Assembly: GCA_946406115.1 (NCBI GenBank)
Contig: OX291544.1
Span: forward strand, 9,796,001 to 9,860,000
Source: Apoda limacodes
Lineage: Eukaryota; Arthropoda; Insecta; Lepidoptera; Limacodidae
DNA: 64,000 nt
Direction of reading: 5' to 3'
Numbering within the stretch: position 1 is the first letter of the stretch; each line of letters begins with the position of its first letter. Below, in pieces: positions 55,046-64,000 of the stretch. The position numbers were made by a program, and so were the translations under genes. The notes beneath the pieces are model-generated. The model was not told the origin of the DNA. It made no database searches and saw only the letters and a list, made by a program, of their open reading frames with translations.

Positions 55046-57594
55046 GAATCTGATATATGGACTGCGCAATAGCCTCAAAGACACAAAGCTAACCTGAGGT
55101 AGGTAGGTACTTTTATACCTACATACTGTCAGACAACTATTGATTGTTTTTAATCCCCATCCATTTCCTAATTTTTATGGAAGAAGCTTTTATTTAAATT
55201 TGTAACAAAAAGTATCGCCATTAATGGCGCCCTGTCTCCGTAATTACAGTCTTTTAATAGAACACTTAAGTTTAAAGGTCCTTAAATATAATAAAGATAA
55301 TGTAGTTACAAAAGTATTAAAGACTTTGTTCTACTTAAGCCTTAATTGTAAGCAATGTTGGTGTCCTAATAAAATAAAAAGAAAAGACCTCTGAGTTCAG
55401 TGGCTAAAAATATTAAACTAAAAAAAAAAATTGTGTGTGTCAGCTCCGACGCACGACTGGAGTTTACTATACATATATAAATATATATTTATTCATTTCA
55501 TATACATTTATTATAACTAATCGACGAAATATTTTACATTAAACTTTTTACAATAGTCAATTTCAGATGTGCACGGGTGCGAGGGACCCTGAGGGTTGGT
55601 TGATTGCCAGAATATTTTGGGCTTCCTTCATTAATTTTTTTTTAATCGGTAAGCTCGCTGTCTCTCGGCTGGAGTTTTTGGAGGTTTAGATTTTTTCCTA
55701 GTAAAAAAATATAAAAAAAAATTAGAAAATTTATAAATGCATAATTATAAAAATTTTAATTAACTTTAAAAAGAAAATTCATAAAAAAAGGTTTTCATAA
55801 ACATTTTTTTAAAATTATTATAATTATTTTTTTATTTAAAATATAATATTATCTCAATAATAAACAAAAATGGTTATAAAAAGATAATTATGTCACAAAA
55901 TCTTTTACGTACAATAATAAATAGTACATGAAAATTATTTAAATAAGCTAAAAAATAACCTTTCAAAGAAAATTTTATAAAAACATTATTATAATGAAAA
56001 AATATTGTCGATTTTTCTGATAATATTATCGAATTATTGACTACAATTGTTAATATTCAAAAATTATTTATAAAATAAATCATAATAACGTGGAAGAATT
56101 TATAGACATCGACAAAAAAATTAATTTTTGGTTAGGTTAGAAATTTTTTATTTTATGTGGATGCGCTCGATAATTATTAAAATATTTAATAAATACAAAT
56201 TGCACATGCTCATAATTATAATACATGAATTGCAACGTACCTTGCAGCCACGTGTTTTTAAGATGTTCCGGCAACATCATCTACACCTCTTTCTGCCATA
56301 GTTATTTGAAAATACCTTCAGTTCACTTTAGCGGAACACAATGATAACGATTAAAACTTCACAATAACAATATTAATTATTGATATTTATAATAAAAACA
56401 GCAATATAAAAATGTCGACACTGATAGAAATAAACAAACCCAATAACATATAGGTATAGTCGCTTTGCAGTATACCCTATGCACATGTCCCTATACCCTA
56501 CACTCACAACCAAATTAGAAAGTTGCGCGACATAGGATGCGCACCAAAAACGTAACGAGGTCATTCATCGATAGATTTTACTCCTCACATTTTTCTCATA
56601 CCGGGCTCCTTATATATGCAAATCGATTCTTAAGGAGTAAACTCCAATAATATTAGGAGTTTAGCGACTTTGTTAAATAAGAAAACAATGGCGAATAATT
56701 TATGAATCGACAGTGTACCTATTAAAATTACTTATTATTTACTTCAAGACAGGATTAAAGATGAAAATGCTAACGTTGATGTAAGGTCCTAAGGCCTTAA
56801 TGAATTGATTGACGCTACTTTGTTTTAAATTACGGACGTAAAGACGCGGAGAGTTGTTTATCGATAACCAATTATTAAACCTACACCTATATTGTATATA
56901 GTGCCTATGATTCCTAAACTAGATTATGGTAATTCCACTTACTGGTTTACAGTCGTGCGTAGACTCTCTCTATCTCTTTCTCTCCCTCTCGTTTCAGCTC
57001 AGCTATGTTGTGTATCTCCCTTGAAAACTCGTACTACCGGAAATTATCCACTCTTTTATCTCGTTTTATTCACCTGGAATTGGTACAAATACAAGTGTAT
57101 ATATTTTGAACACAAAAGACGTTGTCTGCTGCAAAAGAAAAATCTCCCTTTTGGGAAAATAGATAGTCCTTTCCTTGTCTCCAAAGTCGTAATTTCTGTT
57201 CCACGAAGTTTAGGCTTCAGAGATCAGAAAGTAAGACTTGCCCAATGAATGACCGAAGATGGTAAAAGGTCAATCACCCTCAATCCAGAAAGGCCTTTCC
57301 GAAAAGCGCTTTCCTTTTTTACACAAGGACTATCTAGACCAAACTACGTTACAGTCTGAAAATACGACACTTAGAAACAAACAAAAGTTCTCACAAAATT
57401 ACAATAAGTGTCGAATAGTTATTTACGTTAATTAAATTACGGGTTAGGATGGGCTCTCCGAGCCTGGAGTAAATCAGAACTGTCAGGATAAAACGTTAGT
57501 ACACAAATTAAAACAATTGCAATTATGAGTCAGATGAAGATCTAAGATACTTAACTCAAAAGCTGACCACTGCCAACCGTTGCCAAAAATTGAC
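55046..57594. other. non-coding AT-rich sequence
   Basis: Very AT-rich from 55,690 to 56,230 with no gene recognised. The plus-strand frame at 56,892-57,248 has no motif. The part nearest 57,594 may include the outer end of the gypsy LTR, whose boundary is unresolved. Confidence 0.4.
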
Positions 57595-58160
57595 TGTCCC
57601 AACCTTCCCATCTTCTATGCTCTCTTCCTCTTTTCGCGCCATATTTTTCACTGTAGACAACTATACCAGCATACTCTGTAACTCGTTTAAAGTTTAGTAA
57701 CCTCGCCTTTATTGCTCTCGCAATAAAGCCGATGACCCCTCTTCATCCTTCCTCTTTGCTAGCTATCTCGACTCGTCACTCGGATTGGCTCCGCCAGTGC
57801 ACGGTCGTTAGAGTGATAGGGACAACTACAGCACGCTCCGCTACTCACGCTTACGTATCTTCGCGCGTCTTGTTTTTCGCGCCAAGATTGCGTTCCCACG
57901 CAAACTTACCCGAGTCTGACACATGTGTTTCGCATTACTCCGAAAGCGTGGCCGGTTTTTAGAATCTTCTACAAAAAATAACTTTAAATGACTGCAACAA
58001 TTGCTAATTGAAGCTACAGGGGTCTTTTGGGTCGCCTATGTTTTATACCTGCTGCGTATGATGTTGGATTTTTAACCGACTTATTTTTGGAGACTTGAAT
58101 AAAACATGATGTACGTAATAAGTATATAACTGAATTTTATTAGGTATCGGGGTCCTCACA
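57595..58160 (-). mobile_element. 3' LTR of the gypsy element
   Basis: The inner boundary is firm: the element strand reads polypurine tract then TGTGAGGACC, starting at 58,160. A TATAAAA box lies at 58,041-58,047 (minus strand), followed by the CCCTGTAGCTTCA block shared with the solo LTR, and an AATAAA in GCAATAAAG near 57,720. The outer boundary is uncertain; 57,595 is chosen because a GGGACA end there gives TG...CA, but a longer LTR is possible. Confidence 0.75.
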
Positions 58161-58171
58161 TTCCCCTCCTC
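58161..58171 (-). promoter_or_regulatory. polypurine tract priming plus-strand DNA
   Basis: The minus strand reads GAGGAGGGGAA directly before TGTGAGGACC. An uninterrupted purine run abutting the LTR is the standard gypsy plus-strand primer site and fixes the LTR edge. Confidence 0.85.
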
Positions 58172-59374
58172 GCAGATCCGTAAAGTTGTGATAGTAACTT
58201 TATGGGCTCTGCGTAGATCTAACCTACTACAACAAATGTAACTTTCTTATTTAGATGTGAGACGTTCGTACTTTGGTAGAATATTTCCTTATACAGTACG
58301 TGCCTGATTGTGAATTGCCGACGTTGCCTGTGTCGTTTTAATATTACTTGGTTAATGGCGAAATCCTACGTAGAGAACTTGAATAATTAGTATGACCTTA
58401 ATATTGGTGTATAAAATGAAAAACATTACGATCCATTTCACCTATGTACGCGCGGTCTATAACTTTAATGTAGGTATCAAAATACGACGGTTTTCCTAAT
58501 TGTGTGTGGGTCCCTTTTTTCCTAGACGTATTTTTCCTAGACCTTTTTGTATTTTAGTTTCCAAACAATACATTCTGACTAAGTTTTGCACGAATCGTGA
58601 TAGGTTTATTGAATTTAGATTTGATTGTATTTGTTATCATTTTGTTATCGGCTTCGATTTGTTTTTGTTTCCTCATTTCTTTAGTCATGAACTCGTTCGC
58701 TCGGGAATTCATCGCTGTCATAAAACACTGCTATATACATATATACACAAGCTTGCATAAAGTTCTATTTCTAGCTCAATTACAATTATATATAATACAT
58801 TCCAAGCTACACACCTCTTAAATCTAATCTTAGTCTAACATGCTATAAAAGCTTTTACGATGCCCTTACTGAACTACTTTATTATTTACTGTCAAGCGGG
58901 TTATATTTCACGAAGCGGTGGATTCCGTTGCAGTAAATTCAGACTTCATTGAAGTACAGGCTCACCTATTTCTCATTATTTTGTCTCTGTGTGTGAAGAA
59001 ATGTTATCCAGTCCCAAACAGTTTAACTCACTAACTTGTACCCACTGGCCACAGTTACTAAAACCGTGCACTCAGTGTACGTTTTTTTTTCTCTTTTTTT
59101 TTTCTATGCACTCGTGCTCTTTAGTATTATAGCTTGGTACCTTCTAGCCATAATTATCTCAACCCCGTCCTGCCGTGATAGACAGGCCGGTAGCGGCTTC
59201 ACGTAATTATGCTTGAGCGTACTTGTTATAATAACATGTATGTAATTTCCTAGTTCGCGGGGCCCCGTCTAAATACTTTCAAGATTGAGCTATTTGGCCG
59301 AACACATCTCTTCACATAGACAGACACCGCGCTATCTAACACTCATTTTAAAACAATGGTTTAATGGAATAACT
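58172..59374 (-). other. non-coding spacer between pol and the polypurine tract
   Basis: About 1.2 kb with no open frame on the element strand that resembles env or any other protein. Open frames here are on the opposite strand and have no motifs. It could be a decayed third ORF or a genuine long 3' non-coding region. Confidence 0.5.
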
Positions 59375-62300
59375 TTAGTCCTCTTTGATAGTGCCATAAT
59401 ACCTAAATATGTGCCTTACGTTGTAATTTCCTCTTATTTTATTCGTTTTAGGGTCGACAATAGTGTATACATTATTATTGTGTGCGGCGCCGATAACATA
59501 CGGTCCCTCAAACAATAAGGAGAATTTACGCATTAACCCTTTTGCTTTGTTTGATTTTGGGAACGTTTTAATTTTAACTAGGTCTCCTATTTGTAGGGTC
59601 AGTAAATTGTGACGTTTATTGTATGTTGTCTTTCTTTTTTCCGCTGATTTTACGATATTATCACGAGCTATTGATATAATCTGTTCTCGATCTAAGTTCA
59701 TAAAACTGTCTATTCCGTGTTTTCCTAGTATTTTGTCTTCCGGTAACTCTAAGCTCTTTCCGTTGATTACTTCGTACGGAGAAAATCCTGTACTAGAATG
59801 CATCGTGTTATTGTAAGTATTTACTACCTGTGATAGAATATTGACCCAACCTTTGTGATTTTTATTACAATAGGACCTAAACAGTCGGTTCAATTCGCGA
59901 TTTACTCTTTCTACTGAATTCGGTGACGGGTTAAAGACACTGGTATGTGATATTTCTATACCTAGATTCCGAAGTCCTTCTTCCCACACTCGCGAAACGA
60001 ACTGCACCCCATTATCGGTGACTATCCTTTTTATTCTTAATTCAGAATGAAACTTTTTGGTCTGACTTAGAACCGCGCGTCCGGTAGCCTTGCGCAATGG
60101 AAACAATTTTATTAGTTTGCTAAACGCATCTTGCATGACATAGACGTATTGCATGCCAAATTGTCCCTTCACCAATGGACCTAAAATGTCTGCGAAAACT
60201 ATCTCGCCTATTTCTTTTGGTATAACTGGTATGCATGGTCCCGTATAAGTTTTAACCTGTTGTTTCGATTTTTGACATATGTCACATGCTTCTAACACCC
60301 TACCTATAACAGTTTTCATTTTGGGAAAATAGTATCGTTTTCTCATACAGTCAAGCACCTTTTTCCTTCCAAAATGACCTAACTTTTCATGTACGGAAAT
60401 AATTAATTCCTTTTTTAAACTTTCAGGAATCACCAACCGTTTATTTTTACTATTTGCGCTCAAGAAAAATATTATATTGTTTTCCAATCTATAGTTTCCA
60501 CTGTTTGGGCTAACTACGTTTTCTACTATTGGATTTAAAGTTAATCCCCTTTTTATAATACTGCACTCTGGATCTTCGTTCTGTAAGTCCTCTATTTTCT
60601 CTAATCGTTCTAATATGGTTTTCTGGTTCGACGCATGGAATAATAACAACTGTGGACATGGAACTTTATTTTCTTGTTCCGTCCCCTCTAAATAGCGACT
60701 TAATATATCAGCCGTAGTATTCATCCGTCCGCTAACGTGTTCGATTTTATAATTAAATTGGTTTAAAAAATGCACCCACCTGATCATTCGCGCATTTAAA
60801 AATTTCCACGTGTATATGAAACTTAAGCTTTTATGGTCAGTGCGGATTATGACCTTAGCTCCTATTAAATAAGTTTCAAACTTTTTTAAACAATATATAA
60901 TCGCGTAAAATTCTATTTCGCTTACAGACCATCTTTTTTCAGTTTCAGTCAGCGCTTTACTGACAAACCCTAACACCATCGGTTCATTGTTGTCCTCTAA
61001 TTGATACACATACCCCGCTATCGCAATAAGGCTTCCGTCAGTCTGTACGTAAAAATCCTTTCCGGTAATAGGGTGAGATAACATTATCGTATCTAAAAAC
61101 AATCCCTTTACTCGTTCAAAACACTCGTTTTCTACATGGGTCCATTTAAACTGCACGTCCTTTTTTAACAATCTACACAATGGCTTTGTCTCCTCCCCGT
61201 AGCTATCGACAAACTTTCTAAAATAATTCGTGAGCCCTAAAAATGCTCGTAATTGTTTAACTGTCCTAGGGGCTGGGAATTCACGAATAGCCTTTGTTTT
61301 CTCCGGGTCCATTTTTACGCCTTCGGTATTTACGATGTGCCCTAACAACTTTACTTCGGTCTTAATAAACTCACATTTTTCTAAGTTACATGTCATGTTG
61401 GCCTCGCGTTATTTTGATAATACTATGTCTAAGTGTTCTAAATGATCAAAAATGTTTGTCCTCGTATATACCACTATATCGTCTACATATGACACACAAT
61501 AGTCGCTAACTGACGGCCCTAGCACTATGTTCATAGCCCGACTAAAGGAACCTAAAGAGCTTTTCAGACCTTGTGGAAGAACAACATAAACATATGTCGT
61601 TCCCATAAAGGAGAAACCTGTATACTGAACCGAGTCATCACTTAAAGGCACCTGAAAATATGAATTTTTCAGGTCAATCAAACTAATATATTTGACCCCC
61701 TGAAACGACTGAAGTATTTCCGATGTTAGTTGTGGCGTCTCCGTGTCCGCTTCAGTCCTGCGATTAAGCTCACGAGCGTCTAACAATAATCGAACCGATC
61801 CGTCCTTTTTCATTGTATACGTAAGAGGACTACTAAATTGCGTCGCTTGCTTTCTAATAATACCTAAACCTTCCAGTTCGTTCAATTTTTCAGCTATCTT
61901 TGCTCTATGTGAAATTGGTATAGGATATGTTCTTTTAACAAAAGGTGTGTTATCGGTCATTTTTATTTTATGAACATATTTGTTAGTTCTACCTAATTTT
62001 GGTGAAAACGTTTCTTTGTTTTTTAATAGGATAGGTATTAAATATGACCTATATTCGTCCGATAAACCTACCGATTCTATATGCGTCTTAATATTTTGTT
62101 CTAAATTTGCCTCCTCACTGACTTTTGCCTGACTTAGAAAACAATTTAGTAACTCCACATCCAGGTTTCCCCCCTCCTGAAATGTAGTATCAACCTGTAT
62201 TTTTATACCTAACTGTTCCATGTATAGTAATTTTTCCGGCCCACATATTAATCGCGCTTTCATTCTTTCTAGCCAATCATATCCCAGTATTAATGGTTTA

Positions 62301-62740
62301 GGTAATCTATTCATAACTAAGACTGGAGTATCAATTTCAACACCATTCACACTTAACGTTATTAAGATCATATTCGTAATTTTTTCAGACTTAGATCCAA
62401 AAGCGCCTTGTATCTGTACTGAAGGAATTGGTACTGATGGTAATTTAATACCGCTAGATTCTATTTCGTTATACAGATCCCGCGAAATACACGTGACTTG
62501 GCTACCCGAATCGATTAACCCACAAACTTTCCTAACATTAATCTCTGCTTTTAATATTGGTAATTGCGGCAAAGCCATGATCATGTCCACCTCATCGTCG
62601 TCTTCAAATAGTTCACTAAATATTGAGTTCATTTCTGGCGAGCAACACTGCATACACGCTATGCACTTTATACTGCTGTCTTCACATATATAATTTTCAT
62701 CGAATTTTAATTGTGACAGTAAATCAATTATTAAGCTGTC
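59375..62740 (-). pseudogene. pol: gypsy pol: protease, reverse transcriptase, RNase H, integrase (one internal stop)
   Basis: The frame is open from 62,740 to 59,377 except for one TAA at 61,409-61,411 just after HLDIVLSK. Counting from the Met at 62,653, the retropepsin GLIDSGSQ lies at 45-52 and the RT YVDD at about 389-392. After the stop, counting from Met 61,396, RNase H TDGS lies at 119-122 and RTDHKS at 185-190. The integrase zinc finger is H336-x4-H341 with C371-x2-C374, and its catalytic residues are D403, D461 and E496. A GPY/F-like end has FEGPYVIG and VRHIFRYY. A Cys cluster (CIACMQCC) precedes the protease. The protein would process Gag-Pol, copy the RNA and integrate the DNA. 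All catalytic residues are present except for Gly instead of Ala after the TD of RNase H. Confidence 0.92.
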
Positions 62741-62969
62741 TCATTCGTTCCATTCATCCGTGCTTGGATTTCCGAACACACAGTATGCCTAGATCCACAC
62801 AGTTCTTTACCTAGGCCCAAACCTGGCTTCCAACCCATCTTACACATATATTTATACGCATTTATTAATGCATTCGTTCTTTCATCCATTTCGTCACAAA
62901 CTATCGTATTGCCACCCCTTCCTATATTTACATGAGTTGACCGATCGAGGCTATTATCGTCAACTAACG
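62731..62969 (-). CDS. -1 frame segment encoding a G-patch-like domain between gag and protease
   Basis: From the slippery site, the -1 frame stays open for about 80 codons to TAATAA (62,731-62,733 is the first stop). Its middle holds ALINAYKYMCKMGWKPGLGL followed by GK, then LCGSRH. The MGWKPGxGLGK core is the hallmark of the G-patch, an RNA-binding/helicase-activating motif known in splicing factors and in betaretrovirus polyproteins. The segment is followed by the pol frame one base away; a single-base loss near 62,735 would explain the break. The position, after gag and before protease, is unlike betaretroviruses, where the G-patch follows the protease. Core spans 62,788-62,841. Confidence 0.65.
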
Positions 62970-62979
62970 TTAGTTTTTT
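62935..62979 (-). promoter_or_regulatory. programmed -1 ribosomal frameshift signal at the end of gag
   Basis: On the minus strand the gag frame reads ACA AAA AAC TAA: heptamer A AAA AAC (62,979-62,973) in the correct phase, followed at once by the zero-frame stop (62,972-62,970). After a 7-base spacer a stem begins: AGTTGAC (62,965-62,959) pairs perfectly with GTCAACT (62,941-62,935), extended by GAT/ATC across one bulged base, with a 10-base loop. Slippery sequence, spacing and stem all match established -1 signals, and the -1 frame enters a long open segment. Confidence 0.82.
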
Positions 62980-64000
62980 GTACTATTTTCCCCACTGCAA
63001 GATTTTACGTTTTGAATATTTGAATTGGTAGACGGCCTCACATCATTATTAGCCTCATTACTAGATGCAATGAAATCGATTGCCCTGTACTGTTCACGCC
63101 CTGTATACCTATTATTTTGCCTAAAATAGTTCCCGCGCGCACGCCTATTCCCGCGACCTCTGGCTGAAACTCTTCCGCGATACGACGGCCTGGCTTGTAT
63201 CGTGTTCGTCTGTAACCCTATACCTATAGATCTGTCCGCCCTATGAGGCTGATATCCTCGTTTCTGAAACGTCTCAGAACTGTTCCTAGTATACTTTGCC
63301 TGCGGAGCCTTAAGCAGGTTTTCGTTGCGAAAGGTCACATTGCGCTCTATGTCCCTTATAAACCTAATTGCATTCATTATCGTGCTATTGTCATTTCGCG
63401 CGAACCAATGCGTCTGTATATTGGCCGAGAAATGACGCATCACGCAATTAACCAGGTCATCTTCCGTGAAGGGTATAGTAAGATTTTTCCCTACACTAAT
63501 CTGCTTGGAAAAATATTCTTCCATAGTCAAACCCGAGCTGATATTGTAAGAGCTATTAATAAGTTTGTATTTTATTTTTTTCCTGCTCACTTTTGTTCCA
63601 GAATACTTCCAAAAAACTAGCTTCGAAGTCATTAAAATTTCGCCAATTGTGCTGGTAAAGTGATAAAATATCGTATGCCGACCCTTTCAGGCATAGCATA
63701 GCTATGTCAAGACCCGTACCGTCACCTTTAGTCAAGTTTATATATTGTTTTAATTTTTTTATGAAATTTACCGAGTTGTCCGATCCGTTGAAGTTCGGTT
63801 TCTTTGGCGTAGGTTTGAGAATACATATCGTCTGGTTTTGACCCGAAGAACTGCCTACTAACTCCGACCTTGTTTCTGAGCTCGCGAATACTTCATTACT
63901 TAACACTGAAGTTTGGTTACTACCACTGAATTCACTCCGATTGCTATAATTTTCCTGCCTATTCTCTAACTTTTCTAGTCGTTTAAGTATTTCGTCTAAT
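62970..64000 (-). pseudogene. gag: gypsy gag (5' part outside window, one frame break)
   Basis: The frame is open from the window edge to 63,556, including a coiled-coil-like stretch (EILKRLEKLENRQ), KPNFNGSDNSVNFIKKLKQY (start of a capsid-like fold) and ILSLYQHNWRNFNDFEASFL. A run of seven A on the element strand (about 63,566-63,573) shifts the frame; the next frame (from 63,632) continues YKLINSSYNISSGLTMEEYF, then a basic tail rich in Arg/Gly (GRVSARGRGNRRARGNYF) and ends at 62,970. There is no CCHC zinc knuckle; the RG-rich tail probably takes over nucleic-acid binding. The gag frame break is one base in a homopolymer, so an assembly error is possible. Confidence 0.8.

What the first reader, a model, noticed from the sequence alone, without database searches (positions are those of the whole stretch)
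62935..62979. Complete -1 frameshift cassette at the gag terminus of a gypsy element
The heptamer A AAA AAC is in exact zero-frame phase, the stop codon follows immediately, and a 7 bp perfect stem (extended to 10 bp with one bulge) begins 7 bases later. The loop contains GCC/CCTC that could pair with a downstream GGGGTGGC (about 62,910-62,920) to form a pseudoknot. All three parts sit exactly at the point where translation must pass into another frame, so chance is unlikely. Site rules are established knowledge; activity is inferred.
Basis: partly seen in the sequence, partly recalled or inferred. Interest (0 to 1): 0.75.

Follow-up and report, generated by a model that had tools for sequence, protein, structure and literature searches.

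The report
Ribosomal frameshift site in G-patch retrotransposons
A jumping gene in a large eukaryotic genome, probably an insect's, carries the RNA signal that should make some ribosomes slip back one base so that its enzymes are made fused to its coat protein; the signal is of a textbook kind, but in this group of elements the first thing made after the slip is a small G-patch domain, otherwise known from some mammalian retroviruses and plant elements.

Summary
On the minus strand the gag-tail frame ends ACA AAA AAC TAA: A_AAA_AAC is in phase (62979-62973), the stop follows at once, and a 7-bp stem starts 7 nt later (62965-62959 with 62941-62935). The -1 frame encodes a G-patch domain (PF01585), followed in other copies by protease and RT in the same frame. 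Of 33 genomic copies, 29 keep the heptamer in phase and 31 keep the 7-bp stem. The window copy itself is damaged elsewhere.

The strongest evidence lies outside the window. Four other G-patch families in this genome (27-43% protein identity where long alignments exist) have pol at -1 to gag, a heptamer at the junction (TTTAAAC, GGGAAAC, GGGAAAC, noncanonical GGAAAAC), and a predicted H-type pseudoknot in the same layout. Three of them show compensatory changes between families. The window's own pseudoknot is plausible but the weakest.

Minus-one frameshifting at gag/pol is common in animal LTR elements. Less expected is the lineage: a Ty3/gypsy group with a G-patch N-terminal to protease, reached only by the shift. 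Frameshift activity and G-patch function are inferred, not measured.

The parts
62973..62979 (-). slippery heptamer A_AAA_AAC in gag zero-frame phase
   Evidence: direct reading; kept in 29 of 33 genomic copies
62970..62972 (-). gag stop codon TAA directly after the heptamer
62966..62972 (-). 7-nt spacer
62959..62965 (-). stem 1, 5' arm AGTTGAC
   Evidence: core pairs kept in 31 of 33 copies
62935..62941 (-). stem 1, 3' arm GTCAACT
62947..62951 (-). putative stem 2, 5' arm GCCTC (in the loop)
   Evidence: variants
62914..62918 (-). putative stem 2, 3' arm GGGGT
   Evidence: variants
62970..63686 (-). gag tail, zero frame (no significant Pfam match; Arg/Gly-rich by eye)
63556..63999 (-). upstream gag piece in another frame (frame break shared with 2 of 30 other copies readable there)
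62731..62982 (-). -1 frame entered by the shift; G-patch ORF in this copy (83 aa)
62755..62856 (-). G-patch domain PF01585, 29.4 bits against cut-off 22
61409..62740 (-). aspartyl protease and N-terminal RT; in this copy out of frame with the G-patch ORF, a break absent from 31 of 31 other copies readable there
59375..61408 (-). rest of RT, RNase H, integrase (same frame, after an in-frame stop that 15 of 15 other copies readable there lack)
56780..58162 (-). 3' LTR, 1383 bp, 100% identical to the 5' LTR outside the window (L043:982-2364)

Best explanation
It is a programmed -1 ribosomal frameshift signal at the end of gag in a recently active Ty3/gypsy LTR retrotransposon. Most ribosomes read A_AAA_AAC and stop at the next codon, giving Gag. 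A minority pause at an RNA stem, most likely an H-type pseudoknot, 7 nt downstream; both tRNAs slip back one base and translation continues in the -1 frame into G-patch, protease, RT, RNase H and integrase. Shown: positions, phase, frame offset, conservation across copies, and recurrence of heptamer plus predicted pseudoknot in sister families. Inferred: that slippage occurs, its rate, and that the window's own stem 2 forms. Also inferred: the G-patch, carried only on the rarer Gag-Pol, recruits a host DEAH helicase of the DHX15 type into particles, as reported for the G-patch of Mason-Pfizer monkey virus (PMC11459146).
For: Phase, stop, spacer and stem. Heptamer kept in phase in 29 of 33 copies; 9 of 33 copies without a stop in the gag-tail, G-patch-protease and RT pieces at the -1 offset; 7 search rows of this family list an open pol frame of 1202 aa. 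Four further G-patch families in the same genome have pol at -1: B TTTAAAC-TAA, C GGGAAAC-TAT-TAA, D GGAAAAC-TAG, E GGGAAAC 18 nt before the stop. All five representatives give an H-type layout with spacer 5-7 and stem 2 of 5-7 bp; shuffles doing as well: A 12, B 0, C 1, D 1, E 0 of 1000. In a gapless alignment of B, C and D, 6 of 14 pairs have changes on both sides, 0 of 500 shuffles reach that, and sliding the partner lowers it to 0-3. G-patch in A, B, D, E above Pfam's cut-off, and in 28 of 33 related pol proteins at E<=0.01.
Against: No frameshift product was measured. The window's stem 2 is short with two G-U pairs, and its local fold is not unusual. Within family A there is no doubly compensated pair in stem 1. 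Stem 2 is unchanged in 26 of 32 copies scored; L020, L021 and L029 change it and keep pairing, but L018 loses an end pair and L027 and L032 lose it. L022 and L026 carry an extra A that fuses the frames. Family D and two C loci (L088, L093) have GGAAAAC, not a canonical heptamer; one C-like locus (L083) showed no site; in L088 the listed gag ORF ends before the site in another frame. The second E locus, L077, keeps the heptamer but scores only -13.2. B has two further in-phase canonical heptamers just upstream and C one 30 nt from the stop, so the slip codon there is not unique. C's G-patch is below Pfam's cut-off (15.4-16.5 bits against 22). The pseudoknot score and the structure counted were written after I had seen the candidate structures.
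Confidence: 0.9

Rival explanations
1. The frame change is made at the RNA level: polymerase slippage on the A6 run adds an A to some transcripts, so that gag and pol become one frame.
For: The run is a homopolymer, and two genomic copies carry one extra A there, which fuses the frames.
Against: Families B, C, D and E have TTTAAAC, GGGAAAC or GGAAAAC at the junction, without a run of six at that place, yet keep the -1 offset and a downstream pseudoknot that polymerase slippage would not need. B does have a run of A just upstream (AAAAAAT), so this is weaker for B.
Confidence: 0.05
2. Pol is made by termination and re-initiation, or from a separate spliced RNA, and the heptamer is coincidental.
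For: The G-patch frame has an in-frame Met codon about 80 nt after the gag stop; many relatives are listed as proteins starting just before the G-patch, but that is how gene callers work.
Against: A heptamer sits at the gag/pol junction in all five families, canonical in four, with a similar spacer and predicted pseudoknot; the -1 offset with overlap recurs in all five, for which re-initiation has no need.
Confidence: 0.04
3. The frame change is only decay of a dead copy.
For: The window copy is damaged elsewhere: gag and the G-patch/protease boundary change frame and RT has an in-frame stop.
Against: Those lesions are absent from 28 of 30, 31 of 31 and 15 of 15 other copies readable there, whereas the heptamer with its stop is shared by 29 of 33 copies and the -1 offset by four other families.
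Confidence: 0.01

Closest known systems
-1 frameshifting between gag and pol in animal LTR retrotransposons (2003 survey, as cited in the review PMC5009743; passages read, the survey itself not seen)
   Same: pol in the -1 frame, classical heptamer at the junction; 28 of 51 animal elements surveyed had pol at -1
   Different: Here an H-type pseudoknot is predicted in five families, and the first domain after the shift is a G-patch.
Betaretroviruses with a G-patch, e.g. Mason-Pfizer monkey virus (PMC1224870 and PMC11459146, passages read; that gag-pro-pol there needs two -1 shifts with a pseudoknot is recalled)
   Same: G-patch in a frame reached only by -1 frameshifting, made on the longer polyprotein
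   Different: There the G-patch is C-terminal to protease; here it is N-terminal to protease and one shift reaches everything. The element is Ty3/gypsy, with no env ORF of 80 aa or more on its strand before the 3' LTR in this copy.
Plant Ty3/gypsy elements with a G-patch (PMC9289625, passages read)
   Same: G-patch in a Ty3/gypsy element; reported in consensus sequences of seven plant species
   Different: Plants; the passages read give no domain order or frameshift. Relatedness to the present group was not tested.
PEG10 and other Ty3/gypsy-derived genes (PMC5009743, passages read)
   Same: Ty3/gypsy-derived gag/pol junction that uses frameshifting with a pseudoknot
   Different: Domesticated genes, no G-patch mentioned in the passages read

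Membership tests
Canonical -1 programmed frameshift site | X_XXY_YYZ heptamer in zero-frame phase | tested here: met
   also families B, C, E; family D noncanonical
Canonical -1 programmed frameshift site | zero-frame stop close by and overlapping open -1 frame | tested here: met
Canonical -1 programmed frameshift site | spacer of about 5-9 nt (recalled range) and a stem | tested here: met
   7 nt, 7-bp stem
Canonical -1 programmed frameshift site | stimulatory pseudoknot | tested here: inconclusive
   window: 12 of 1000 shuffles as good, weak stem 2; sister families B-E: 0-1 of 1000, covariation in B/C/D
Canonical -1 programmed frameshift site | measured frameshift product | not testable with these tools
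   needs a reporter or proteomics
Ty3/gypsy LTR retrotransposon | PR-RT-RNase H-IN order and LTRs | tested here: met
   LTRs 1383 bp, 100% identical
G-patch domain PF01585 | match above Pfam's curated cut-off | tested here: met
   29.4 bits against 22
Betaretrovirus-type G-patch | G-patch C-terminal to protease (PMC1224870) | tested here: not met
   it lies N-terminal to protease in the window family, in sister families and in relatives
Betaretrovirus-type G-patch | separate pro and pol frames, two shifts (recalled) | tested here: not met
   in 9 of 33 copies G-patch, PR and RT pieces are open in one frame; single ORFs in relatives
Errantivirus (gypsy with env) | env ORF between pol and 3' LTR | tested here: not met
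   no minus-strand ORF of 80 aa or more between 58162 and 59375 in the window copy; other copies not examined there
DHX15-recruiting G-patch | binding of DHX15 and packaging into particles | not testable with these tools
   reported for M-PMV in PMC11459146 (abstract start in listing, passages)

The most novel reading that the evidence does not exclude
A single Ty3/gypsy lineage took up a G-patch once, put it directly behind the gag/pol frameshift, and has kept both since. A pseudoknot-set shift thereby meters a helicase-recruiting domain into particles, convergent with betaretroviruses and with the opposite domain order. The recruited helicase may act on the packaged RNA, possibly including the pseudoknot that controls its own dose.
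Probability: 0.35. Interest if true: 0.72.

Novelty: new variant of a known kind. Interest (0 to 1): 0.5.

Why it matters
The cassette is a new member of a common class. Five diverged families with different heptamers and re-paired stems in one genome make it a good comparative case for which parts of a frameshift signal are kept. The lineage also carries a G-patch in a position that, in the searches, I did not find described for animal Ty3/gypsy elements. If it binds DHX15, helicase recruitment by a frameshift-metered domain arose independently in two retroelement groups, which can be tested directly.

Tried and rejected
Phage collection search with the G-patch ORF: no match. Protein search with the 83-aa G-patch ORF: no candidate. 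IMG/VR with the PR-RT piece gave one locus, L001, a chance match in a contig whose ORFs look like a phage's; with alignment A3, 14 pattern matches and none confirmed. Prokaryote genomes: 26 pattern matches, one weak relative (L044, 25% identity, titled a Chloroflexi MAG), not used. Solved structures: only weak matches, best E 0.028 to SURP and G-patch domain-containing protein 1. Simple fold z-score: not significant. Stem covariation inside the window's family: too little variation. A second frameshift between G-patch and protease, my first idea in the notebook: rejected, since 31 of 31 other copies readable there lack the window's break. Host identity: not settled; the start of one contig held no telomere repeat. 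That it is an insect, perhaps a moth, is inferred from 31 contigs and from two named hits (P0065 Plutella xylostella; P0070 Phthorimaea, RT piece only). The own-genome search with P0065 for further families did not complete. The relatives' search takes only proteins of 0.55-1.75 times the query length (up to about 1270 aa), so relatives with gag and pol fused could not appear; P0003, without a listed G-patch, has what looks by eye like gag sequence and protease in one frame. The second protein query was built from G-patch proteins and only the 7994 candidates sharing most words were scored, so 28 of 33 is not an unbiased frequency. Two notebook entries are superseded: '>=10 copies' open is 9, and the gag lesion is not private (2 of 30 share it).

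Full report
WHAT IS THERE. The region is the minus strand of a Ty3/gypsy element whose 3' LTR lies at 56780-58162 and whose 5' LTR starts about 1 kb beyond the window's end; the LTRs are 1383 bp and 100% identical, so the insertion is recent, and the element spans about 9.6 kb. The gag-tail frame ends AGT ACA AAA AAC TAA. The heptamer A_AAA_AAC (62979-62973) is in zero-frame phase, the stop follows, and the -1 frame is open from 62982. Stem 1 is AGTTGAC/GTCAACT after a 7-nt spacer.

CHANCE. An in-phase canonical heptamer occurs at about 1% of codons in this element's own frames (16 of 1547, the site included) and 0.3% under an order-1 model; the overlap is 4 codons, so 1-4% by chance. The fold of 106 nt is ordinary (z -0.61). 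A score for spacer, stem 1 and stem 2 is matched by 12 of 1000 shuffles and 40 of 2409 other windows. The site alone is therefore good but not overwhelming.

WHAT THE NEXT FRAME ENCODES. The -1 frame encodes a G-patch domain (PF01585, 29.4 bits, cut-off 22), then protease. In this copy the G-patch and protease are in different frames; that break is absent from 31 of 31 other copies readable there. The window copy also has a frame break in gag, shared with 2 of 30 readable others, and an in-frame stop in RT, absent from 15 of 15 readable others. Copies with these pieces open exist. The family therefore needs a single shift, at the heptamer.

COPIES. The genome (800 Mb, 31 contigs) gave 33 matches to the 121-bp site, 14 of them identical including the window; counts are lower bounds. 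All 33 were fetched, the window's own place (L042) among them. The heptamer followed by TAA is kept in 29 of 33. L022 and L026 have one more A, which fuses the frames; L032 has an insertion; L033 has lost it. Nine of 33 have no stop in the gag-tail, G-patch-protease and RT pieces at the -1 offset; the others have stops or indels, the extra A, or pieces not readable in one alignment. The seven core pairs of stem 1 are kept in 31 of 33, one of them by a change to G-U in L029 and L032; L031 and L033 break them. In the outer and inner extensions L015, L016 and L018 share a change that keeps a pair and L020 and L021 each break one. No pair is doubly compensated. Putative stem 2 is unchanged in 26 of 32 copies scored; L020 and L021 turn a G-U pair into a Watson-Crick pair, L029 keeps pairing through two changes, L018 loses an end pair, and L027 and L032 lose the helix.

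SISTER FAMILIES. A protein search of the same genome with P0007 returned 95 matches. Twenty further loci were fetched. Thirteen carry a gag end and a G-patch pol start or parts of them; the other seven (L076, L078-L080, L083-L085) gave no readable junction. Beside the window's family A there are four: B (L081, L082) T_TTA_AAC then TAA; C (L086, L087, L090-L092) G_GGA_AAC TAT TAA; D (L094, one damaged copy) G_GAA_AAC TAG; E (L075, L077) G_GGA_AAC 18 nt before the stop. In each pol is at -1. Of the other C loci, L093 is at -1 with GGAAAAC, L089 has a broken gag, and L088 is damaged so that its listed gag ORF ends before the site in another frame. B has two more in-phase canonical heptamers just upstream, and C one 30 nt from the stop. 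That these are families of one lineage rests on the protein match and the G-patch, which is above Pfam's cut-off in B, D and E and below it in C; they were not placed in the tree. Pol N-terminal identity between A, B, C and E is 27-43% over 326-342 residues; D aligns over short stretches only; the gag tails of B and C are 51% identical over 81 residues, so these families are diverged but not independent in origin. Representatives of all five give the same H-type layout: spacer 5-7, stem 1 of 6-11 bp, loop 1 of 4-8 nt, stem 2 of 5-7 bp, loop 3 of 7-16 nt. Shuffles as good: 12, 0, 1, 1 and 0 of 1000 for A to E; other windows of the same locus as good: 40 of 2409, 0 of 3009, 0 of 2909, 0 of 2909, 8 of 2709. 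The score was defined after inspection, so these numbers are descriptive. The second E copy scores only -13.2 (L077). In C, 10 of 13 loci examined have GGGAAAC, two GGAAAAC, and in one (L083) the pattern was not found; the 12 with a site have the same score. In a gapless MAFFT alignment of B, C and D, 6 of 14 pairs changed on both sides (4 of 7 in stem 1); 0 of 500 shuffles reach this, and sliding the partners by 1-3 columns drops pairing from 83% to 21-48%. Stem 2 pairs in 71% of cells there, since D's own stem 2 lies one register off. With three rows this is modest in depth but clear in direction.

LINEAGE. A search with an alignment of three G-patch-bearing relatives returned 67 proteins, 30 of them (P0037-P0066) close pol proteins from mostly unnamed records, one from Plutella xylostella. 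Among these 30 and the three query proteins, G-patch is matched in 28 of 33 at E<=0.01 and its core is visible by eye in 31 of 33; P0038 and P0059 start later. An RT tree of 64 rows (P0007 and P0045 left out, as were rows with short RT alignments) puts the group on one side of one branch (95/79; 97% of 200 bootstrap trees); a core of 30 rows including the window has 100/99; the nearest rows outside are P0003-P0006 and P0069. I defined the group by hit rank, which coincides with the G-patch label, so clustering was expected; P0005 and P0006 are partial, so absence of a G-patch there is not shown. One origin is the simplest reading.

MECHANISM. Shown: heptamer, phase, offset, conservation, recurrent predicted pseudoknot. 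Inferred: tandem slippage producing Gag-Pol at a minor ratio. Transcript slippage is unlikely because B to E have no run of six at the heptamer, though B has one just upstream. For the G-patch the closest tested case is Mason-Pfizer monkey virus, whose G-patch is reported to recruit the helicase DHX15 into particles and to support genome packaging (PMC11459146; abstract start in the listing, passages). By analogy the domain here would recruit a host DEAH helicase, dosed by the shift. This is inference.

KNOWN OR NEW. A review states that 28 of 51 animal LTR elements surveyed in 2003 have pol at -1, many with classical heptamers (PMC5009743, passages), and that A_AAA_AAC is among the most shifty heptamers on mammalian ribosomes. 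The cassette is thus an ordinary kind. G-patches are described in betaretroviruses, C-terminal to protease (PMC1224870, passages), and in Ty3/gypsy elements of seven plant species (PMC9289625, passages). Searches for G-patch with gypsy, Ty3, LTR retrotransposon, Metaviridae, or transposable element and insect listed no paper whose title or abstract start describes this group; only open-licence papers are held and most listed papers were not opened.

Noticed in passing
window 61409-63600: The window copy has identical LTRs yet three frame lesions (gag, G-patch/protease boundary, RT) that most or all readable other copies lack; assembly error or mobilisation in trans are both possible.
   Followed up: partly
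family C, e.g. L091 and L096-L099: A second G-patch family looks abundant and uniform: 28 rows list an open pol frame of 1211 aa, of which L091, L097, L098 and L099 were checked at the shift site; it may also be recently active.
   Followed up: partly
L022 and L026: Two copies have an extra A in the slippery run, putting gag and pol in one frame at the site; a natural fused state.
   Followed up: no
L094, L088 and L093: GGAAAAC instead of GGGAAAC at the shift site with the predicted pseudoknot kept; either a decayed or a tolerated noncanonical heptamer.
   Followed up: no
G000 C25:17086568, 17089317 and 17092066 (L033 covers the last): Three protease-fragment matches exactly 2749 bases apart: part of this element seems caught in a tandem array.
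   Followed up: no
window 58163-59374: About 1.2 kb between pol and the 3' LTR without a minus-strand ORF of 80 aa or more.
   Followed up: no
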